DNA of 11,492 nucleotides from Streptosporangiaceae bacterium (GTDB lineage: Bacteria > Actinomycetota > Actinomycetes > Streptosporangiales > Streptosporangiaceae). The stretch lies in assembly GCA_030040475.1 (NCBI GenBank), contig JASHTQ010000414.1, forward strand, positions 1 through 11,492. Direction: 5' to 3'. The translations under genes and the position numbers were made by a program. Below, in pieces: positions 1,304 to 10,023 of this stretch (position 1 is the stretch's first letter; every line of letters starts with the position of its first letter). The notes under the pieces were generated by a model, which was not told where the DNA came from, ran no database searches, and was given only the letters and a program-made list of their open reading frames with translations.

Positions 1304-2224
1304 ATGATCTACAATCCGATTGTAAATCCGCTCTTCTTGCCCACCGCCATAAGAATTCTCGTTATCTTGCTGCTGCTGTTCCTGGCCGCATTGTGGCGGC
1401 GCGTCAATGCCGCCAAATCGAGCGCGACTTCTACCATGCTGAGCAAGATCATAACGGTCGCCTGGGTGGCCCCGATCCTGCTGTTTGCCCTCTTCTGCGG
1501 GGGTCTGGTGCTAGCCGTAGTAGTGGGCCTGGTGCTAGTAGAGGGGCTGGCCGAATATACCCGGCTCGTCGATCTCGGCCGGCGGTACAGCCTGCTGCTA
1601 GCCGGATATTCCATCATCACGCTGGTCCTGAGTGCGCTGCGGTCCTCTTATATCGTAATGCTGATGCTGCCATTCGGGTTGTTTCTGATATCCACCCTGA
1701 TACCGATACTCTCGGGCGAAACCGTGGCCGCGCACAGGCAAGTGGGCTCGGTAATGTTCGGCTATCTTTACATCGGTATCGGCCTGTCCAGCATCGTCTT
1801 TATACGTGCCACCCAAAAATGGGGCCTGGAGTTCCTGATCATCGTCGGAACCGCGATCGCCCTCTCCGATGCGGGCGGGTATATTGTCGGGTCTTCTGTC
1901 AAGGGTCCCAGGCTGGTGCCACGTGTGAGCCCGGGAAAGACGTGGAGCGGCCTGGCCGGCAGCCTACTGGGAGTCATCACGGGAATAGCGATCCAGTGGT
2001 TCGCAAGACCAAGCAGCTGGAAGCTATATATTGCCATTTTGCTGGCCTTCGCGGTGACCGTGGGCTCGGTCTGGGGAGATCTCATTGAGAGCTTCGTGAA
2101 GCGGAACTTCGGCGTGAAGGACGCCGGTGATGTGCTACGAGGCTTTGGCGGCGTGCTCGATCGTTTCGACTCGTTCCTGGTAGCAGTGCCGCTAGCCTAT
2201 GCAGTGGTGCTGGCGGCGATATGA
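1304..2224 (+). CDS. CdsA-family phosphatidate cytidylyltransferase homologue
   Basis: This 306-residue multi-pass membrane protein belongs to the CdsA family, which makes CDP-diacylglycerol from CTP and phosphatidic acid at the inner membrane. Hydrophobic segments lie at about residues 11-31, 48-80, 97-110, 115-137, 150-167, 176-188, 216-231, 240-257 and 289-305. The family's middle motif is present (DAGGYIVG at 189-196, then SPGKTWSG at 209-216). So is the C-terminal signature from S263 to D289: SFVKR, KD at 272-273, and LDRFD. Within that signature the near-invariant Pro-Gly-His-Gly-Gly reads Arg-Gly-Phe-Gly-Gly (279-283), so the His is replaced by Phe281. The start has only a weak Shine-Dalgarno site. 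The gene overlaps the next one by ATGA, so the two are coupled. Codon use is odd (many ATA, CTA, AGA). The family is sure; the exact substrate is not, and it may be a specialised paralogue rather than the housekeeping enzyme. Confidence 0.88.
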   Translation: MIYNPIVNPLFLPTAIRILVILLLLFLAALWRRVNAAKSSATSTMLSKIITVAWVAPILLFALFCGGLVLAVVVGLVLVEGLAEYTRLVDLGRRYSLLLAGYSIITLVLSALRSSYIVMLMLPFGLFLISTLIPILSGETVAAHRQVGSVMFGYLYIGIGLSSIVFIRATQKWGLEFLIIVGTAIALSDAGGYIVGSSVKGPRLVPRVSPGKTWSGLAGSLLGVITGIAIQWFARPSSWKLYIAILLAFAVTVGSVWGDLIESFVKRNFGVKDAGDVLRGFGGVLDRFDSFLVAVPLAYAVVLAAI

Positions 2225-2844
2225 GCATATTTAGACTTGGGGCGCGCGGCAACAACGACATCCCGGTTCAGGACAGGGTGTTGACGGTTGCGAATGCCAT
2301 TACCCTGGTACGCCTGCTGCTTGTACCGCTGCTCAGCTGGCTAGTTGCCGTGCAGCACGCGTGGCTGATCGCCTTTATAATATTCTGGGCAGCAGCGGTT
2401 ATGGATGCGCTGGATGGATTTGTCGCGAGGCGTTTCAACCAGGTCACAAAGATTGGTACCTGGCTCGACCCCACCGTAGACAGACTGGTAATGATCGCAA
2501 TACTGCTAATCCTGGCCCTTGCTCACGTAATTCAGGTATGGCTGCTGGCTTGCGTCGCTGCCCGGGAGCTGGCGCTGGGCCTAATCGTCCTCATTATCTG
2601 CCACGGCCGAATGCCTGTATCCGTCGCAAACACTGGGAAACTGGGGACGCTGCTGCTCTTCTTCGGCCTTCCGGGCCTGCTCCTCGGCCGGGTGCCGGTG
2701 CCGGACGGCAGCTACCTGCGCGCATTCGTGATAGTACTGGTCTCGGCAGGCCTGGCGCTCTACTATCTGTCGCTCGTCCAGTATACGAAGATGGCCCTGC
2801 GCTGGCGCAGTAATAAGAACGTTGCGGCGAAGGCCGCGACGTGA
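2221..2844 (+). CDS. CDP-alcohol phosphatidyltransferase (PgsA-like)
   Basis: This 207-residue integral membrane enzyme moves a phosphatidyl group from a CDP-linked lipid to an alcohol such as glycerol phosphate, inositol phosphate or another phospholipid. The complete catalytic signature is visible: D62-x2-D65-G66-x2-A69-R70-x8-G79-x3-D83-x3-D87, whose Asp residues bind the metal ions. The family's N-terminal NAITLVRLLLVPL helix (25-37) and a GKLGT (139-143) also match the PgsA branch. The other hydrophobic segments are at about 48-62, 90-105, 106-127, 142-156 and 166-186. The start codon lies inside the stop region of the cytidylyltransferase gene (ATGA), which implies translational coupling and a product/substrate relation through CDP-diacylglycerol. 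The alcohol acceptor cannot be told from sequence; phosphatidylglycerol phosphate synthase is only the default label. The ATA-rich codon use is shared with the upstream gene. Confidence 0.88.
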   Translation: MSIFRLGARGNNDIPVQDRVLTVANAITLVRLLLVPLLSWLVAVQHAWLIAFIIFWAAAVMDALDGFVARRFNQVTKIGTWLDPTVDRLVMIAILLILALAHVIQVWLLACVAARELALGLIVLIICHGRMPVSVANTGKLGTLLLFFGLPGLLLGRVPVPDGSYLRAFVIVLVSAGLALYYLSLVQYTKMALRWRSNKNVAAKAAT

Positions 2845-2939: not shown

Positions 2940-5639
2940 TCAGGAATCCGGGGATTTCATCAGCCCGCTTTGGACGGCTTCCTCCAGTGACATCGCCTTT
3001 CCTTCGCGCCGCGCCGCGGCGAACGCCGGCGTCCGGAGCGGGTCGAGATCCTTGTGGATCTTGCTCTCGAGGGCGCTGTACTCGGCGTGCAGACGCCGTC
3101 CCTTTATCTGCCCGTATATGCGGTCCGCGGTGCCGAGCAAGCGCGCGCCCGCCGCGCCGTTGCCGTCCCGGGCTGCCGCGGCGGCGAGTCCCTCCAGGCA
3201 TTCAGCCGTGCCGGCCAGATCGCCCACCTCGTTGCGCAACTTCAGGCTCTCTTGCAGCAGCGAGCGGGCCGTTGCCAGATCGTCGTTGATGTAGCTGAGG
3301 AGCCCGGCAAGATGCGCAGCGAGTATGACCCCGCGTTTGTAGCCCAGCTCCCTGCAGGTCCGCAGGCTCTGGTCGGCAAGTTGGACGGCGGCGGCTGTGT
3401 TGCCGCGCGCGACGGCGGCGTAGCCAAGATAGATCCTGGTCAGGGCGGCTCCGGTGCGTCCCCTGACCGGGCGGCGGCGTTGCATGTCGGCGGCCTCCGT
3501 CAGCAGCGTGACGGCCCCTTCCGGGTCGTCGATGCAGAGCAGGGCCAGGGCGAGGTCGGTAGCCGTCCACACGATGCCCCACTCGTCGTCAAGCCCGCGG
3601 TATATGCGCAGGCTCTCCTCGTACTGCCGGACGGATTTCTCGTATTCGCCCATCTCCTTGGCGACGAAGCCCAGGCTGTTCAGCGACTTGGCCCTGCCCT
3701 CGGCCTTCGAGACGAAACCGAGCTCGGTCAGCAGCGTGGCCGTGGCCGCGTCGTCCGGCAGCTGGTCGAACAAGCCGAACCCTTCCTCGAGCAGCTGCCT
3801 GGCCTCCTCGAAGTCGCTCAGGTGGTAGGCAAGCATGCCCAGCCAGTTAAGCGCCTTCGCGCGGACTGGGGCGTGGGCTATCAGGCCGGCCGTCAGCAGC
3901 TGCTGCAGCCAGCGCCGCCCCTCGCCGAACTGCCCGCGGATGTACCACAAAGGCGCGTGCGCGCTGGCGAGCCGGAGCCCTTCCTCGATGTCGACGGCAC
4001 CAGCCGCGCTTCGCTCCAGCACGGCCCGGATGTTGTCGTCCTCGGGCGACAGGCGGGATACCCAGTTCTGCTGGCCAGGGCCCTCGAGATCCGGCTCGGC
4101 CGACTCGACCAGCTTGCGGAAGTACTCGGCATGCCTGTGCCAGATGTGACCTTGCTCGCCGTTCTGGCTCAGCCGGCGAACGGCGTGCTCCCTGACCGGC
4201 TCGAGTATGAAGTAGCGGTAGCTGTCGTTGACGGTGCGGACAAGGACCAGGCTCGCGTCGAGGAGGACCCTGAGGTTCGGCAAGATATCGGCGCTGGGGC
4301 TTGGGCCGCTGCAAATTGCCTGCGCGTCCGTTAGCGTGAAACCCCCGACAAAGACGCCGAGCTGCGCGAATAGCGTGCTTGCCGAGGCATCAAGCCGATC
4401 CACGCTGGTCCGGATGACGGTGTTGAGCGGCTCGACCAGGACCGTCAGGTGACCGAGCATCTCCTTCGGCGACAGCATCGTCACCGCGCTGGCGAGCAGG
4501 TGGATCGCGAGCGGCAGCCCGCTGACCTTGACGCAGAGCTGAGCGACCGCTTGAGCGTCGCCCGGCGTGAGGGCGAAAGTCGACTGGACCGCCCGGGCTC
4601 TTTCCACGAAAAGTCTCACGGACGGATTCGCCATCAGTGCCTTCACCGGCTCCGGAGGGTCGAGCGTGGGCACCGCGAGAGGGTTGATCTGGATAATCGA
4701 CTCCCCGGGGATGTTCAGCGGAGTCCTGCTTGTTATCAGGAGCTTGAGCTTCGGACAGGCCTGGAGAAGGTCGCTGGCCACATTCTTGGACGGGAGGGCC
4801 CGCTCGAAGCCATCGAGCAGCAGGAGAACTCGCTGATCGGCGACGAATTCCGCGAGCCGCTCGGAAGCCTGAATGTCGCCTGTCGTGTGAACACCCAGTT
4901 CCCGGGCTATCGAAGACTCAAGGAGCTCGGGCGTCTTGGTCGGCGAAAGGTCCACCCGGTAGATGCCCTCAGGAAAGGCCTCCATGACGTCCGGATCTGC
5001 TCCCGCCTCGAGTGCGAGATGTGATTTCCCGACACCGGCCGACCCGACGAGCGTGAGCAGGCGTGTCTCGCCAAGCAGTTTCTCCCGGACGAGGCGGACC
5101 TCGGCCTCGCGGCCGACCAGGTCCATGAGCGGACGGGGCCATCGGCCTCGTTTCGGGGCGGCCTGCTGCCGGGGCAACTGCCGCCTCAACTCGACCGCCA
5201 GGTCGTCGATGGCCTCCGCGACGACAGTCCATCCTCGGTCTCGCGGCTGCCACTCCGTTACCGGCTTCCCGTCGGTCGGAAGGACCTGGAGCTTGGCAAA
5301 CGGCGCGCCCCTCCAGTAGACGGGCCGCAACAGGATGGGGACCACCCGCGCCTTCCCCGCCTGATGCCTGGCCATCGCGGCCTGCATCTCGACCCCCCAG
5401 CAGTACTCAGACTGGATGAAGTCGCTGCTGATCAGCAGGAGGATCAAATCCGCGTCGGCCAGCTTCTCGTCTATTTCCTCCTCCCAGTTTGTTCCGGGAA
5501 GGATGTTTCTGTCGCTCCAGTCTTGGATGACTCCGTTGCGCCGCGGAACTGCCAGCGCGGCGCTCAACTCCATGCGGAGCGCTTCATCCTTGTGCGCGTA
5601 AGAATAGAAGACCTTGACCGGCTCGATGTGCGTCGGCAT
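2940..5639 (-). CDS. TIR / NB-ARC / TPR protein (prokaryotic NLR-like STAND ATPase)
   Basis: The start is the ATG at 5639, behind GGGGGAG at 5644-5650; an upstream in-frame extension lacks such a site. The protein has 899 residues. Residues 8-155 form a TIR_2-type domain (VFYSYAHKDE; W41-x-D-R; LILLLISSDFIQSEYCWGVE), with Glu84 at the position of the NADase catalytic glutamate. NB-ARC follows: VGRE at 175-178, Walker A GSAGVGKS at 199-206, Walker B VLLLLDGFE at 271-279, LLITSR at 300-305 and GLPL at 374-377. A winged helix covers about 415-490 and TPR-like helical repeats about 550-840. The end (RLLGTADRIY, then FAAARREGKAMSLEEA) is typical of actinobacterial LuxR/AfsR-like ATPases. By family, TPR sensing should drive nucleotide-dependent oligomerisation and TIR NAD cleavage, in phage defence or stress signalling. 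No transmembrane segment or DNA-binding domain is seen. It converges on the phosphatidyltransferase gene with a 95-base gap. Confidence 0.9.
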   Translation of the reverse strand: MPTHIEPVKVFYSYAHKDEALRMELSAALAVPRRNGVIQDWSDRNILPGTNWEEEIDEKLADADLILLLISSDFIQSEYCWGVEMQAAMARHQAGKARVVPILLRPVYWRGAPFAKLQVLPTDGKPVTEWQPRDRGWTVVAEAIDDLAVELRRQLPRQQAAPKRGRWPRPLMDLVGREAEVRLVREKLLGETRLLTLVGSAGVGKSHLALEAGADPDVMEAFPEGIYRVDLSPTKTPELLESSIARELGVHTTGDIQASERLAEFVADQRVLLLLDGFERALPSKNVASDLLQACPKLKLLITSRTPLNIPGESIIQINPLAVPTLDPPEPVKALMANPSVRLFVERARAVQSTFALTPGDAQAVAQLCVKVSGLPLAIHLLASAVTMLSPKEMLGHLTVLVEPLNTVIRTSVDRLDASASTLFAQLGVFVGGFTLTDAQAICSGPSPSADILPNLRVLLDASLVLVRTVNDSYRYFILEPVREHAVRRLSQNGEQGHIWHRHAEYFRKLVESAEPDLEGPGQQNWVSRLSPEDDNIRAVLERSAAGAVDIEEGLRLASAHAPLWYIRGQFGEGRRWLQQLLTAGLIAHAPVRAKALNWLGMLAYHLSDFEEARQLLEEGFGLFDQLPDDAATATLLTELGFVSKAEGRAKSLNSLGFVAKEMGEYEKSVRQYEESLRIYRGLDDEWGIVWTATDLALALLCIDDPEGAVTLLTEAADMQRRRPVRGRTGAALTRIYLGYAAVARGNTAAAVQLADQSLRTCRELGYKRGVILAAHLAGLLSYINDDLATARSLLQESLKLRNEVGDLAGTAECLEGLAAAAARDGNGAAGARLLGTADRIYGQIKGRRLHAEYSALESKIHKDLDPLRTPAFAAARREGKAMSLEEAVQSGLMKSPDS

Positions 5640-5650: not shown

Positions 5651-5703
5651 AAGTCCAGACGGAACGTGGCCAGGCATCGCGGGTGGTCGAGACCGCTGAC
5701 ATG

Positions 5704-5709
5704 CATAAT
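5704..5709 (+). promoter_or_regulatory. Possible -10 element of the GH2 gene (CATAAT)
   Basis: CATAAT matches TATAAT at five of six positions. It ends nine bases before the ATG at 5719, and no Shine-Dalgarno site lies before that ATG. Together these suggest a leaderless transcript, which is common in actinomycetes. No convincing -35 hexamer is visible. If translation instead starts at 5701, this hexamer is coding and the call is wrong. Confidence 0.3.
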
Positions 5710-5718
5710 GATGACACT

Positions 5719-7545
5719 ATGGCCACGGAGAACCACCCTCGACCACAGTTGGTCCGGCATCGCTGGGTCGATCTTTGCGGCGAGTGGCAGTTTGCTTACG
5801 ACGACACCGACATCGGCATCCGCGAGGGCTGGCCTAATCGCCGTGACGTCTTCGACCGCACGATCGTCGTGCCGTTCCCGCCGGAGTCCCCGGCGAGCGG
5901 CATCGGAATCGCCGCGCCGCACCCGGTGTTGTGGTACCGCCGTGTGTTCACCGTCGATGAGGCAGACATCGGCGGCCGCCTTTTGCTCCACTTCGGCGCG
6001 GTCGATTATCGGGCCGAGGTCTGGGTCAACGGCCAGTCGGTCGTCCGCCACGAAGGCGGGCACACGCCGTTCACGGCCGACATCACCGGCGTCGTGCGGC
6101 CCGGAGAGCAGGTTCTCGTCGTCCGGGCCGAGGACCAGTGCGACGAGGGCCAACCGAGGGGCAAGCAGTACTGGAACGCCGTGCCCGAGCAGATCTGGTA
6201 CAGCCGTACCTCCGGAATCTGGCAGACGGTCTGGCTCGAACCCGTTCCCGCCACGTACGTGTCCGCGATCCGGTGGACGCCCGACGTCGACCGGGAGAGG
6301 CTGACCGTTCAGGTATCGATACGGCCGCCTGCATCGCGGCCGCTGCGCCTCCGGCTGGAGTTGCGCCTTCACGGCGAGACGCTGGCCGACGACGTCGTCC
6401 TGTTCCAGGGGAGCGATCTCACCCGGGAGATCGCCATGGCCGCGGGCGTGCCGAGGGGTACCAGGAACGAGCGCCTGTGGTCGCCCGACTATCCCAACCT
6501 CATCGACGCGACCTTGACGCTGATGGACGGCGACGTCGCGGTCGACCAGGTCGCAAGCTATGTCGGCTTTCGCGGCGTCGGGACCGAGGACGGGAGATTT
6601 CTCCTGAACGGCCGGCCGTATTTCCTCCGGCTTGTGCTGAACCAGGGATACTGGCCGGAATCACACCTGGCAGCGCCGGACGCCGACGCGCTGCAACGCG
6701 AGGTCCGCGCGATCAAGATGATGGGCTTCAACGGCGTGCGGGTACACCAGAAGGTCGAGGATCCGCGCTTCTTGTACTGGTGTGACCGGCTGGGCCTGCT
6801 GGTCTGGGCCGAAATGCCGAGCGCCTATTCCTTCTCCGCCTCCGCGGTGCAGCGACTCACCCGTGAGTGGCTCGAGGTGCTGCATCGTGATCACAGCCAT
6901 CCGTGCGTCGTGACGTGGGTGCCCTTTAACGAGAGCTGGGGGGTGCCCGGCCTTCGCGACTCGGCGCAGCAGCAGGCATACGTCCGGGCGATATTCCAGC
7001 TGACCCACGCCGTCGACGGCACCCGGCCGGTGGTGGCCAACGATGGGTGGGAGCACATTGACGGCGACATGCTGGGCATCCACGATTACACATCGCACGG
7101 GGAGGCACTGCATGACCGCTACGGTGATCCGCGGGAACTACAGCGCACGCTTCTCACGATGCAGCCCGGCTCCCACCGGCTCACGATCGACGCGCCGGCG
7201 CCGGGCGAACCGGTGGTGCTAAGCGAGTTCGGCGGCATCACCTTGCCGCCGCCGACCGAGCGAACGGCATGGTACGGCTACGGCTTCGTCGGTGACGAGG
7301 AGGCCCTGCTCGCCAAGTACGACGAGCTGACCAGTGCAGTTCTGGCGTCGACCGCGCTGGCCGGGTTCTGCTACACCCAGCTGACCGATGTGGAGCAGGA
7401 GCCCAACGGCTTGTACACGGCCGACCGCAGACCCAAGGTCGATCCCAAGCGCATCATGGCCATCACCTCGCAGCCCGCCGCCGCCCTCCCCGGAGAGGCG
7501 ATACACCCGCCGCCGCAGCCCTTAGGCACCCGGAACGCGGCTTAG
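5719..7545 (+). CDS. Glycoside hydrolase family 2 enzyme (beta-galactosidase/glucuronidase-like)
   Basis: The 608-residue protein (from ATG 5719) has the GH2 order: an N-terminal jelly-roll sugar-binding domain (about 10-175, with VWVNG and GGHTPF), an immunoglobulin-like domain (about 180-285) and a TIM barrel (about 295-570) opened by LNGRPYFLRLVLNQGYWPE. The acid/base is Glu405 in WVPFNESWG and the nucleophile is Glu503 in VLSEFGG. Both are intact, so a retaining mechanism is expected. There is no signal peptide, so it should act in the cytoplasm on imported or internally released glycans. GH2 covers beta-galactosidases, glucuronidases, mannosidases and, as I recall, some actinobacterial beta-galactofuranosidases. 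The last is tempting beside the mutase gene with which it converges. The ATG at 5701 is an alternative start; extension further up would overlap the divergent TIR gene and is unlikely. Family sure, substrate unknown. Confidence 0.9.
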   Translation: MATENHPRPQLVRHRWVDLCGEWQFAYDDTDIGIREGWPNRRDVFDRTIVVPFPPESPASGIGIAAPHPVLWYRRVFTVDEADIGGRLLLHFGAVDYRAEVWVNGQSVVRHEGGHTPFTADITGVVRPGEQVLVVRAEDQCDEGQPRGKQYWNAVPEQIWYSRTSGIWQTVWLEPVPATYVSAIRWTPDVDRERLTVQVSIRPPASRPLRLRLELRLHGETLADDVVLFQGSDLTREIAMAAGVPRGTRNERLWSPDYPNLIDATLTLMDGDVAVDQVASYVGFRGVGTEDGRFLLNGRPYFLRLVLNQGYWPESHLAAPDADALQREVRAIKMMGFNGVRVHQKVEDPRFLYWCDRLGLLVWAEMPSAYSFSASAVQRLTREWLEVLHRDHSHPCVVTWVPFNESWGVPGLRDSAQQQAYVRAIFQLTHAVDGTRPVVANDGWEHIDGDMLGIHDYTSHGEALHDRYGDPRELQRTLLTMQPGSHRLTIDAPAPGEPVVLSEFGGITLPPPTERTAWYGYGFVGDEEALLAKYDELTSAVLASTALAGFCYTQLTDVEQEPNGLYTADRRPKVDPKRIMAITSQPAAALPGEAIHPPPQPLGTRNAA

Positions 7546-8927
7546 CGTGCCGTGTCCTCTCCGCGCGGCAGCCACGTCCGTTCGGGCCGGTCGAGAAGCA
7601 TGGCATCGGCGAATTCCACCCCCTGCATCAGGGAGTGATCCATGTTGCCGATCTCGTACAGCCAGGCGCCGAAGCGGCCACGGGACCAGATGCCCCGGCT
7701 ACGCAGCCACGGCTGAATCGTGCCGAGCGCGGAGTCTCTTCCGAGGGTGGGGACCGGGTAGCTCTTCGCCGGGGAGACGCGCCAGCGGGCCACGATCCGA
7801 TCCAGGTCGGCATCTTCCAGCAGCCCGGTCGTCACCAGCCCGCGGAGCACCCTGGCGAGGATGGTCCGCGAGTCTTCCGGCTTATGGTCCGACCAGGACG
7901 TCTCGGCAAGCAGGCTGAACTGGCCCGGCCGCGGCGTAACGAACGGCGAATAATTGGACAGGTAGGTCACCCGGTAAAAGGGGACGTCGCTCTCGGGAAA
8001 GTAGATCCAGTTCTTCGCGCTGTCGTTCGGCCGGTCAATCCCGATCCCGACCACGTGGGTACCGCTCGAGCGCAGGCCGCGGGCGGCGCGGCGGATCTCC
8101 TTCGGCGCGCTCTCGATGGCGGCGACCAGGTCATCGAGTGGCATCGTCGATAGCAGGACGTCGTAGTCGAAGACCCGGCCGTCGGCGGTGGCAACCCGCT
8201 TGGCGGCCGCGTCGACCGCGATCACGCGGCAGTCGAGCAGCAGCCGGGGCGCCAGGGCGCGGCCGACTTGCTCCCAGAGGAATCCCGAGCCACCGCGCAG
8301 CGGGTAGCTGAAACTGCTGTTCGGTCCCCAGTTCATGCCCGGTTCATCAAGCAGGACGTTCCGCAGCAATTGCTCGATACTGACGGCAGCGACCCGCTCG
8401 TCGATCCAGTCGAAACTCATCAGTTCTGGCGGGGTGGCCCATACCTTCGCGTTGTAAGGAATCATGAAGTGGTCGGCAATCCCGTTGCCCATAGTTGCGC
8501 GGATCCAGTCACCGAAATTCCGTGGCTGCCCGCGACCCGGCCGCTCGATCGCGGCTTGCACGGCGCCGCTTACGCAGTCATAGATCGTCTGCGGCTCCAG
8601 CCTGCGGATGTTCATCTGGAACGGATAGCCGATAAATCGGTTTTCCATCCAGATCCAGGCCTGCCTGGTCACGGTCGAAACCTGATCACCCAACATGCGC
8701 CGGAGCAGCTCGTCATGGTACTCATAGTGGCTGAACATCACATGCCCGCCGATATCCCAGGTGAAGCCCGCGCAGTCGACATATGATTTCGCCAGGCCGC
8801 CGACCCGATCGCTTTCCTCAAGCAGCACCCAGTTGTCGTAGCCGAGCTCCTGCAGGCGGTAACCCGCCCCGAGGCCTGTCGGGCCGGCGCCGATAATCAC
8901 GATCCGCGGGTTCGCGGGGCTGCTCAT
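7542..8927 (-). CDS. glf: UDP-galactopyranose mutase homologue, eukaryotic-type (FAD enzyme)
   Basis: The start is the ATG at 8927, behind GAGGAAGG (8932-8939); the product is 461 residues. The N-terminus is a Rossmann FAD site: GAGPTGLG 13-20, Glu37, RVGG 41-44. The rest closely follows fungal UDP-galactopyranose mutase as I remember it: GGHVMFSHY 60-68, YPFQMNI 101-107, PYNAKVWATP 157-166, NWGPN 199-203, WIYFPES 307-313, FYRVTYLSNYSP 317-328, and GRFGAWLYEIGNMDHS 417-432. Residues matching the Aspergillus active site are all present: His62, Tyr101, Gln104, Trp163, Arg178, Asn203, Trp307, Tyr309, Arg319, Tyr326, Tyr390, Arg418, Tyr424, Asn428. The reaction would interconvert UDP-galactopyranose and UDP-galactofuranose, using reduced FAD. 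Classical bacterial Glf is shorter and differs through most of these blocks. It follows the glycosyltransferase gene by 28 bases. A related FAD oxidoreductase with another substrate cannot be excluded. Confidence 0.8.
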   Translation of the reverse strand: MSSPANPRIVIIGAGPTGLGAGYRLQELGYDNWVLLEESDRVGGLAKSYVDCAGFTWDIGGHVMFSHYEYHDELLRRMLGDQVSTVTRQAWIWMENRFIGYPFQMNIRRLEPQTIYDCVSGAVQAAIERPGRGQPRNFGDWIRATMGNGIADHFMIPYNAKVWATPPELMSFDWIDERVAAVSIEQLLRNVLLDEPGMNWGPNSSFSYPLRGGSGFLWEQVGRALAPRLLLDCRVIAVDAAAKRVATADGRVFDYDVLLSTMPLDDLVAAIESAPKEIRRAARGLRSSGTHVVGIGIDRPNDSAKNWIYFPESDVPFYRVTYLSNYSPFVTPRPGQFSLLAETSWSDHKPEDSRTILARVLRGLVTTGLLEDADLDRIVARWRVSPAKSYPVPTLGRDSALGTIQPWLRSRGIWSRGRFGAWLYEIGNMDHSLMQGVEFADAMLLDRPERTWLPRGEDTAR

Positions 8928-8955: not shown

Positions 8956-10023
8956 TCAACGAGCTGTTCGCAGATCAGCAAAGGTGAGGCTCTCAGCGGG
9001 AAGCATTTCCCTGAAGCGAACGTACCTGTTAATTAGATTGCGCCAGCCCGCACGGGGCAAGCCCGAGTGATCGATCAATTCGTCCAGCAATCCGCGGGCC
9101 GAGTAGGCGTCCCTGACCAGCGGCATCCCCAGCCGCTGACAGACACGGCTGGTGGAGGTTTCGAGCCCGGGAACCCCCGGCATAAGCAAGAAGGGGACGC
9201 CGGCGTCCGCGGCCTCCTGGAGGGTGAGGGACCCTGGCTTGGTGACGATCAGGTCATACTCATGGAACGTCCGGGCCAGGTCCGGGAAGAACTGCAGAAT
9301 GCGTATTCCAGGAAAGTCGCTGCGCATAGTGGCGGCTAGCCTGTCGTTATTGCCGCAGGCGACTGTCAGGACCGGCCGGCACCGCGCCTTGAGCAGACCC
9401 GAGGTTATCTCCCAGATAGGTCCCACGCCCTCAGCCCCGCCGATCACGAGGATATGCGGCCGGGCAGACCGCGGTGCGCTTTTAACCGTCGCCGCGATCG
9501 GTAGTCCGGTAGGAAGGCGCCGGACAATGACCCGGCCGGGAGGAACGCCGGCCCGTACCGCGTGTGCGCGCATCTGCTGGCTAGCCAGCACGTACAGGCT
9601 GGCGTTCGGGGTGAACCACTCGGCCGGCCCGCTGAACAGGTCCGTGGGCACTACCACCACATTGCAAGCGAAGCTGTTGAGGTCATCGATATAGTTGCAG
9701 TAGAGCGGGTGGGTGATGATCACAAGATCGGCCTCCGCCTCGGCCTCGCCTATCGCGACATGCGGCGGGATTATCCAGCGGATTATCGAGCGGTTGAGGG
9801 CGCGAACCGTGCGGAGCCGGCGGCTGTAATAGTAAAGGGCCCAGACGGCGGGCAGGCTGGTGACCAGGTACGAGTACGCCTTCGGGATAATATTGGAATT
9901 GTCGGCGGCGCCGGCATCGGATATCTTGATCGCGGTGGCTTCTTCGTCGAGTCGTGTCGCAATGGCAGCGGCGAGAGAACCATGAGCGCCGCCAGTCTGG
10001 GCCGTCAGGATGACGATACGCAT
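8956..10023 (-). CDS. MGDG synthase / MurG-like (GT28-type) glycosyltransferase
   Basis: This 355-residue GT-B fold protein resembles the diacylglycerol glycosyltransferase/MGDG synthase group, which moves a sugar from a nucleotide donor to a lipid at the inner membrane face. Its N-terminal half has GGAHGSLAAA (11-20, the usual Gly-Gly-x-His loop), DLVIITHPL (99-107) and VVVVPTDLF (122-130), which match the MGDG_synth domain. The C-terminal half has HILVIGGAEGVGP (190-202) and the donor-site signature DLIVTKPGSLTLQEA (257-271), then GVPFLLMPGVPGLE. No signal peptide or clear membrane helix is seen, so peripheral membrane binding is likely. The ATG at 10023 places the first strand (MRIVILTAQ) correctly but has no Shine-Dalgarno site. 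A GTG at 10065 would add 14 residues that the fold does not need. It is probably co-transcribed with the downstream mutase gene. Donor and acceptor are unknown. Confidence 0.82.
   Translation of the reverse strand: MRIVILTAQTGGAHGSLAAAIATRLDEEATAIKISDAGAADNSNIIPKAYSYLVTSLPAVWALYYYSRRLRTVRALNRSIIRWIIPPHVAIGEAEAEADLVIITHPLYCNYIDDLNSFACNVVVVPTDLFSGPAEWFTPNASLYVLASQQMRAHAVRAGVPPGRVIVRRLPTGLPIAATVKSAPRSARPHILVIGGAEGVGPIWEITSGLLKARCRPVLTVACGNNDRLAATMRSDFPGIRILQFFPDLARTFHEYDLIVTKPGSLTLQEAADAGVPFLLMPGVPGLETSTSRVCQRLGMPLVRDAYSARGLLDELIDHSGLPRAGWRNLINRYVRFREMLPAESLTFADLRTAR

What the first reader, a model, noticed from the sequence alone, without database searches (positions are those of the whole stretch)
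7542..8927. Eukaryote-type UDP-galactopyranose mutase in an actinomycete
The protein shares long ordered blocks with fungal UDP-galactopyranose mutase (GGHVMFSHY, YPFQMNI, WIYFPES, FYRVTYLSNYSP, GRFGAWLYEIGNMDHS). It keeps every active-site residue I can recall from the Aspergillus enzyme, with block-wise constant offsets in numbering (for example Trp163, Arg178, Asn203; then Trp307, Tyr309, Arg319, Tyr326; then Tyr390, Arg418, Tyr424, Asn428). Classical bacterial Glf is shorter and lacks most of these. Such a gene could be a bacterial relative of the ancestor of the eukaryotic enzymes, a transfer, or an enzyme with a new substrate.
Basis: partly seen in the sequence, partly recalled or inferred. 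Interest (0 to 1): 0.75.

Follow-up and report, generated by a model that had tools for sequence, protein, structure and literature searches.

The report
Bacterial eukaryote-type UDP-galactopyranose mutase
An unidentified bacterium carries a sugar-ring-switching enzyme of the sort known from fungi and trypanosomes; its family turns out to be widespread in bacteria, often beside sugar-transferring and sugar-cutting genes, and the eukaryotic enzymes look like one branch of it.

Summary
Window 7542-8927, minus strand, encodes a 461-aa protein whose only strong PDB matches are the T. cruzi and A. fumigatus UDP-galactopyranose mutases (44.5% and 42.5% identity). All 15 active-site positions checked are kept; the model (pLDDT 92) matches those enzymes first; no classical bacterial Glf is hit by sequence. 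It is neither rare nor a transfer from eukaryotes: 7036 of 7997 scored database proteins reach E<=1e-10, and 78 of 80 fetched bacterial loci keep all 15 residues. In a rooted tree the eukaryotic rows form one clade inside a bacterial clade, and the window's gene lies in a different, Actinomycetota/Chloroflexota, clade; joining the two is rejected. In the 33 nearest loci a GT4 gene is nearby in 25, a glycoside hydrolase in 24, GalT in 6. A Methylomagnum plasmid fuses GT4 to the mutase in one ORF, followed by GH2, galT and galK. The window's own GH2 falls with the GH2_18/19 furanosidase subfamilies. Best reading: a real UDP-Galp/UDP-Galf mutase feeding a galactofuranosyltransferase, with turnover enzymes nearby. 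No activity was tested.

The parts
7542..8927 (-). Eukaryote-type UDP-galactopyranose mutase, 461 aa (P0001)
8956..10023 (-). Glycosyltransferase of the MGDG-synthase/GT28 type, same strand, 28 bases upstream of the mutase start (ATG 10023; the ORF can also start at GTG 10065). Candidate user of UDP-Galf, or simply a glycolipid synthase
   Evidence: Pfam MGDG_synth 38.6 bits; PDB MGD1 4wyi 58.6 bits, both with a query one codon longer; not found in the fetched stretches of the other 80 loci
5701..7545 (+). GH2 glycoside hydrolase of the GH2_18/GH2_19 (furanosidase) group, convergent with the mutase, stop codons overlapping. Start not settled: ATG 5701 or 5719, ORF open from TTG 5614; my searches used 5704-7542
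   Evidence: PDB 7xyr (GH2_19 in PMC12243196; depositors' label is beta-glucuronidase) 350 bits, 7sf2 273, Streptomyces beta-D-galactofuranosidase 9j6n 244, next GH2 105 bits; FNES and SEFGG present; subfamily meaning from passages of PMC12243196

Best explanation
It is a true UDP-galactopyranose mutase: reduced FAD attacks C1 of UDP-Galp through N5, UDP leaves, the sugar ring opens as a flavin iminium and recloses through O4, and UDP returns to give UDP-Galf. The UDP-Galf feeds a nearby glycosyltransferase (a GT4 in most near relatives, perhaps the GT28-like one here), and the neighbouring GH2 trims furanose residues in the same pathway. The gene belongs to a bacterial family of which eukaryotic UGMs are one later branch. 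Shown: homology, active site, predicted fold, tree, gene neighbourhood. Inferred: catalysis, substrate, the partner glycosyltransferase, the direction of flux.
For: 44.5% and 42.5% identity to TcUGM and AfUGM, which are 49.9% identical to each other. All 15 active-site positions kept here, in 78 of 80 loci and in 239 of 241 P-proteins. AlphaFold2 pLDDT 92.1; the first 34 PDB matches are all T. cruzi or A. fumigatus UGM, then a drop to protoporphyrinogen oxidase. Q104 (uracil) and N203 (sugar O3) kept, unlike four PRK07208 paralogues (roles from passages of PMC3624792 and PMC4192007). GT4 near the mutase in 25 of the 33 nearest loci, and fused to it in Methylomagnum and Pantoea. A GH2 of the furanosidase group beside it in the window. 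Classical GLF found in 0 of 26 genomes carrying near relatives.
Against: No enzyme assay of a bacterial member showed in the listings of nine literature searches. T165, L423 and M429 differ from TcUGM V163, R428, Q434. The partner glycosyltransferase differs between window (GT28-like) and relatives (GT4). GH2_18/19 also holds alpha-L-arabinofuranosidases, and the closest structure is labelled beta-glucuronidase, so the GH2 may not act on Galf. The absence of GLF is weak: genomes are drafts of unstated completeness, and in 198 genomes of the phylum GLF occurs in 27, this type in 10, both in 1, about what chance gives. A Gloeothece plasmid stretch has GH2-galT-galK with no mutase in it, so those genes can go without UGM.
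Confidence: 0.87

Rival explanations
1. A furanose-forming mutase of the same chemistry but a different sugar nucleotide (another hexose, 6-deoxyhexose or pentose).
For: PRK07208 paralogues (L094, L095, L096, L103) keep the catalytic frame but change Gln104, Asn203 and, in 3 of 4, Tyr424, so the scaffold may take other substrates. The best NCBIfam match of the window protein is far below its cut-off (192 against 389 bits).
Against: The window protein keeps Gln104, Asn203 and Tyr424; galT, galE and galK stand beside some relatives.
Confidence: 0.08
2. Gene transferred into this bacterium from a fungus or protist.
For: High similarity to eukaryotic enzymes.
Against: Window nests in a bacterial clade (100/100 with P0003 and with the Actinomycetota group); one clade of eukaryotes plus window lineage rejected, p-AU 8.9e-7; eukaryotes plus the Actinomycetota subclade rejected, 4.8e-7.
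Confidence: 0.01
3. An FAD amine oxidase or protoporphyrinogen oxidase, as many automatic names say.
For: Pfam Amino_oxidase 65 bits; names such as 'protoporphyrinogen oxidase'; the general fold is shared.
Against: PPO structures match at 14-18% identity and TM about 0.7 against 0.89-0.93 for UGM; UGM active-site residues kept.
Confidence: 0.02
4. The mutase serves a galactofuranosyl glycolipid here: the GT28-like neighbour transfers Galf to diacylglycerol. A variant of the best explanation, not its opposite.
For: 28-base spacing on one strand; MGDG_synth domain and MGD1 match; cdsA-like and CDP-alcohol transferase genes in the same window. That Galf-diacylglycerols exist in some bacteria is recalled, not from a call.
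Against: The pairing is seen only in the window; none of the other 80 loci has this GT28 within the fetched stretch. MGDG synthases normally use UDP-Galp or UDP-Glc (recalled).
Confidence: 0.3

Closest known systems
Eukaryotic UDP-galactopyranose mutase (TcUGM 4dsg/4dsh, AfUGM 3uk*)
   Same: 42-45% identity, same length class, all 15 active-site positions, GGH loop, uracil-binding Gln; predicted fold TM 0.89-0.93 by query length
   Different: Bacterial gene in a separate clade; 461 aa against about 480-510; T165, L423, M429 differ
Classical bacterial Glf (Pfam GLF PF03275)
   Same: Same reaction expected; FAD GxGxxG motif
   Different: No PDB sequence hit at E<=1e-3 and no PF03275 match; 14-18% identity between the two types (PMC3624792) and 5 of 13 active-site residues shared (PMC4192007)
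PRK07208.1-4 (NF005548) bacterial paralogues
   Same: 26-29% identity; keep GGHY, W163, R178, W307, Y309, R319, Y390, R418, N428 in the four looked at
   Different: Lys for Gln104, Ile/Thr/Asp for Asn203, His for Tyr424 in 3 of 4; window protein scores 192 bits against a cut-off of 389
GH2_18/GH2_19 furanosidases (Streptomyces JHA19 beta-D-galactofuranosidase 9j6m/n; 7xyr)
   Same: Window GH2 matches these far above other GH2 structures (350/244 against 105 bits)
   Different: Activity unknown; the two subfamilies also include alpha-L-arabinofuranosidases (PMC12243196), and 7xyr itself is labelled beta-glucuronidase and called uncharacterised there

Membership tests
Eukaryotic-type UDP-galactopyranose mutase | Full-length homology to TcUGM and AfUGM well above other FAD amine oxidases | tested here: met
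   396 and 348 bits against 34 for the next
Eukaryotic-type UDP-galactopyranose mutase | Catalytic and phosphate residues: His, 3 Arg, 3 Tyr | tested here: met
   H62, R178, R319, R418, Y309, Y390, Y424
Eukaryotic-type UDP-galactopyranose mutase | Uracil-binding Gln absent from bacterial Glf, and two Gly before the active-site His | tested here: met
   Q104 and G60-G61-H62; the feature as stated in PMC3624792
Eukaryotic-type UDP-galactopyranose mutase | UGM fold | tested here: met
   pLDDT 92.1, top 34 PDB matches all Tc/Af UGM
Eukaryotic-type UDP-galactopyranose mutase | Phylogenetic place inside the eukaryotic clade | tested here: not met
   Sits in a bacterial clade of the same family; grouping with eukaryotes rejected. 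A member of the wider family, not of the eukaryotic branch
[quoted passage not shown]
   needs an assay
Classical bacterial Glf | GLF domain PF03275 | tested here: not met
Protoporphyrinogen oxidase | NCBIfam PPO models above cut-off | tested here: not met
   26.6 bits against 97.85 (TIGR00562), 30.4 against 517 (NF008841)
GH2_18/GH2_19 furanosidases (window GH2) | Best similarity to group III structures and the NE acid/base motif | tested here: met
GH2_18/GH2_19 furanosidases (window GH2) | Thr in place of the -1 subsite Trp (group III hallmark in PMC12243196) | not tested
   no alignment to a group I GH2 was made at that site
GH2_18/GH2_19 furanosidases (window GH2) | Activity on beta-D-Galf | not testable with these tools
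   needs an assay

The most novel reading that the evidence does not exclude
Bacteria of several phyla carry a self-contained galactofuranose module built round a eukaryote-type UGM: a GT4 galactofuranosyltransferase (fused to the mutase in Methylomagnum and Pantoea), a GH2 furanosidase, a GH1-like glycosidase, GalT and GalK or GalE. I noticed no exporter or polymerase in the near-set operons or the Methylomagnum cluster (not searched systematically), so it may make and recycle an intracellular Galf compound (storage or stress solute), a Galf cycle. The eukaryotic UGMs would be one offshoot of this bacterial family, and the PRK07208 proteins sister mutases for other furanoses.
Probability: 0.3. 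Interest if true: 0.7.

Novelty: new member of a known kind. Interest (0 to 1): 0.5.

Why it matters
UGM is a studied drug target and is described as two classes, prokaryotic and eukaryotic. If the many bacterial genes now named oxidoreductase are mutases of the 'eukaryotic' class, that split is a naming accident, the eukaryotic enzyme has a testable bacterial origin, and many bacteria not known for galactofuranose are predicted to make it. The GT4-mutase fusions point straight at candidate galactofuranosyltransferases, a class with few characterised members.

Tried and rejected
Transfer from a eukaryote: rejected. Amine oxidase/PPO reading: rejected on active site and fold. Mutual exclusion with classical Glf: 0 of 26 genomes with near relatives have GLF, but in 198 genomes of the phylum of L001's genome the overlap (1, G357) is about chance, so I make no claim. 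Host of the window: CdsA searches gave a better best hit in 246 genomes of L001's phylum (246.6 bits) than in 251 of L014's phylum (181.2 bits), both at 40% identity: consistent with Actinomycetota, not proof. Window GT28 in 10 related genomes: none, but the tool warns that an empty answer without a positive control shows nothing. The first neighbour clustering chained GH1-like and GT4 genes into one cluster and used some antisense ORFs (one hid GalT and GalK); I replaced it with tblastn by named queries. Gloeothece plasmid stretch L084: GH2, galT, galK but no mutase; its FAD protein matches over 74 residues only; the Gloeothece mutase matches counted were not looked at. Context of the bacterial clade nearest eukaryotes: of 61 genomes of L031's phylum, two (G562, G571) match P0184 at 64-65%; of six neighbour ORFs of G562 sent to Pfam two are GT2 glycosyltransferases, and three of G571 gave no glycosyltransferase.
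Full report
Observation. The gene is real and at the stated place, on the minus strand: ATG 8927, TAA 7544-7542, 461 aa. Its PDB matches are T. cruzi UGM (396 bits, residues 5-450) and A. fumigatus UGM (up to 348 bits); the next is a putative aminooxidase at 34 bits, and no prokaryotic Glf is among the 24 hits at E<=1e-3. Pfam sees Amino_oxidase and not GLF PF03275. Identity in a MAFFT alignment is 44.5% to TcUGM and 42.5% to AfUGM, against 49.9% between those two. That call used the stretches printed, not full chains.

Active site. From passages of PMC4192007 and PMC3624792 I took His62, Arg176, Asn201, Tyr317, Arg327, Tyr395, Arg423, Tyr429, Asn433 of TcUGM and the uracil-binding Gln107 and the GGH loop of AfUGM; Tyr100, Trp161 and Trp315 of TcUGM are my own additions (recalled). 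All 15 positions are identical in the window protein. Checked by pairwise alignment in the 80 loci, 78 have all 15; L036 has Phe at Tyr390 and L048 is cut by its contig end. Of 241 proteins (the window protein included), 239 have all 15; one has Arg at Trp307 and one lacks the first three. The 80 relatives go down to 38% identity.

Fold. AlphaFold2 on 64 aligned sequences gave pLDDT 92.1, pTM 0.91. Foldseek against PDB (50 of 1714 matches listed): ranks 1-34 are all T. cruzi or A. fumigatus UGM (TM by query 0.89-0.93); ranks 35-50 are protoporphyrinogen oxidases and other amine-oxidase-fold proteins at 14-18% identity. Classical Glf is not in the listed 50.

How common. 7036 of 7997 scored candidates reach E<=1e-10; at that limit some may be paralogues or eukaryotic. 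Names given by sources among the 120 listed mix 'UDP-galactopyranose mutase', 'protoporphyrinogen oxidase' and 'FAD-dependent oxidoreductase'. The genome collection gave 108 relatives, 80 kept, with record titles naming Actinomycetota, Chloroflexi/Anaerolineae, Acidobacteria, Gemmatimonadetes, Sumerlaeota, Omnitrophota, Nitrospirae, Deltaproteobacteria, Planctomycetes and others. In 198 genomes of the phylum of L001's genome (that genome, chosen for having the gene, is one of them) 10 have it at E<=1e-60 (34-66% identity) and 27 have classical GLF, with one in both (I take the two draws to be the same genomes).

Tree. A careful IQ-TREE run on 64 rows, rooted on four PRK07208.1-4 paralogues, puts all eight rows labelled eukaryotic with three unnamed environmental rows in one clade (95/90). 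The eight are A. fumigatus, T. cruzi, L. donovani, Leptomonas, Vitrella and three eukprot rows, two of which I believe to be prokinetoplastids (recalled). That clade lies inside a larger one (97/96) with bacterial rows, among them proteins named Gemmatimonadota, Acidimicrobiales and Sumerlaeia. The window lies elsewhere: with P0003 (100/100), in an Actinomycetota group (100/100), with Chloroflexota and Rubrobacter rows nearby. Weak points: the branch joining the window's clade to the remaining bacteria has 82/56; the outgroup branch is long (2.76); the program warns that long branches meet between the fusion rows and the outgroup. An earlier quick tree of 85 rows, rooted at the midpoint, showed the same nesting. 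Holding eukaryotes with the window lineage, or with its Actinomycetota subclade, is rejected (p-AU 8.9e-7 and 4.8e-7); these groups were named after the tree was seen. Fungi are represented by one incomplete sequence; animals and algae are missing.

Neighbourhood in the window. The mutase starts 28 bases after a GT28/MGDG-synthase-like gene (8956-10023) on the same strand. Tail to tail with it, stop codons overlapping, is a GH2 gene. That GH2 matches 7xyr (350 bits), 7sf2 (273) and the Streptomyces beta-D-galactofuranosidase 9j6n (244), with the next GH2 at 105 bits. PMC12243196 (passages) places 9j6m in GH2_18 and 7xyr in GH2_19, which together form a group with activities on furanoses (beta-D-galactofuranosides and alpha-L-arabinofuranosides); GH2_19 is about 10% secreted. 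7xyr is labelled beta-glucuronidase by its depositors and called uncharacterised in that paper. The window GH2 keeps the NE motif that 7xyr has lost. I ran no signal-peptide predictor.

Neighbourhood in relatives. I scanned the fetched stretches (up to 8 kb each side, shorter at contig ends) with ten query proteins besides the mutase. Several queries come from these same loci (L005, L009, L019, L076), so those loci count themselves. The near set is the 33 loci at 49% identity or more (L001-L029, L031, L048, L072, L076); I drew it. In these 33: GT4a 25, GH1-like 19, GH2 10, GalT 6, GH43 5, GalE-like 4, GalK 4, GH5 4, any of the four hydrolases 24, the window's GT28 0. In the other 47: GT4a 2, GalE-like 3, all other queries 0. 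L005 has GH1-GT4-UGM-GalE-GH2-GalT in one direction; L076 has GT4-UGM-GH2-GalT-GalK. L018 repeats the tail-to-tail GH2 of the window, with the closest GH2 of the 80 loci (57%). Acidobacterial loci instead show GT2, sulfotransferases and a Wzx-like flippase, and Streptomyces loci a different GT4 (Pfam on representatives only).

Fusions. A Methylomagnum ishizawai plasmid has one 874-aa ORF with GT4 (Pfam hits between residues 176 and 337) and UGM (from about 365), then GH2 (47% to the window's), galT, galK and a GH1-like gene (26%). A Pantoea plasmid has a 1236-aa ORF with GT4 (about 596-742) and then UGM (from about 775). Fusion of a mutase to a glycosyltransferase suggests that the transferase uses the mutase's product; that is inference.

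Reading. The protein is very likely a UDP-Galp/UDP-Galf mutase with the flavin-N5 chemistry described for TcUGM (PMC4192007, PMC3624792). Its product probably feeds a galactofuranosyltransferase. In the wider module the furanosidase and GalT/GalK would recycle galactose, so a closed Galf cycle is possible; I noticed no transporter or polymerase beside the Methylomagnum genes up to galK and the GH1-like gene (a potassium transporter follows), but I did not search for them systematically. Against it, a Gloeothece plasmid has GH2-galT-galK with no mutase in the stretch seen. For the window itself, a glycolipid made by the GT28-like partner is equally possible.

Print. In nine searches of the paper library no listed title or abstract start reports a bacterial enzyme of the eukaryotic type or a GT-UGM fusion; three listings were cut (25 of 29, 15 of 41, 10 of 19 shown). 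For PMC8092308, PMC3624792, PMC4192007, PMC12243196, PMC7278926 and PMC1852411 I saw passages only; PMC11627007 is not held. In the passage seen, PMC8092308 names four fungal enzyme clades that hold bacterial or plant sequences and UGM is not among them. Subscription papers are mostly missing, so this is no proof of novelty.

Noticed in passing
L094, L095, L096, L103: PRK07208.1-4 paralogues keep the UGM catalytic frame but replace Gln104 by Lys and Asn203 by Ile, Thr or Asp, and in three of four Tyr424 by His: possible furanose mutases for other nucleotide sugars, now named 'hypothetical'. L104 is a further paralogue with its own changes.
   Followed up: partly
L082:3906-6530 and L081:2688-6398: Natural single-ORF fusions of a GT4 glycosyltransferase with a UGM domain on Methylomagnum and Pantoea plasmids.
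   Followed up: partly
window 2940-5639, minus: TIR-NB-ARC-TPR protein (Pfam TIR_2, NB-ARC, TPR), a possible defence or signalling protein.
   Followed up: no
window 1304-2844, plus: CDP-diacylglycerol-synthase-like gene overlapping a CDP-alcohol phosphatidyltransferase; the synthase is only 40% identical to its best hits in the 497 genomes searched in two phyla.
   Followed up: partly
L087:1-7386: The Ewingella plasmid mutase-like stretch (6001-7386, no CDS annotated there) lies near a glycosyltransferase, a manganese catalase and ferritin-like genes, a hint at a stress role.
   Followed up: no
L018: Contig labelled Pleurocapsa (cyanobacterium) carries a mutase that groups with an Anaerolinea row (100/96); transfer or misbinning.
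   Followed up: no
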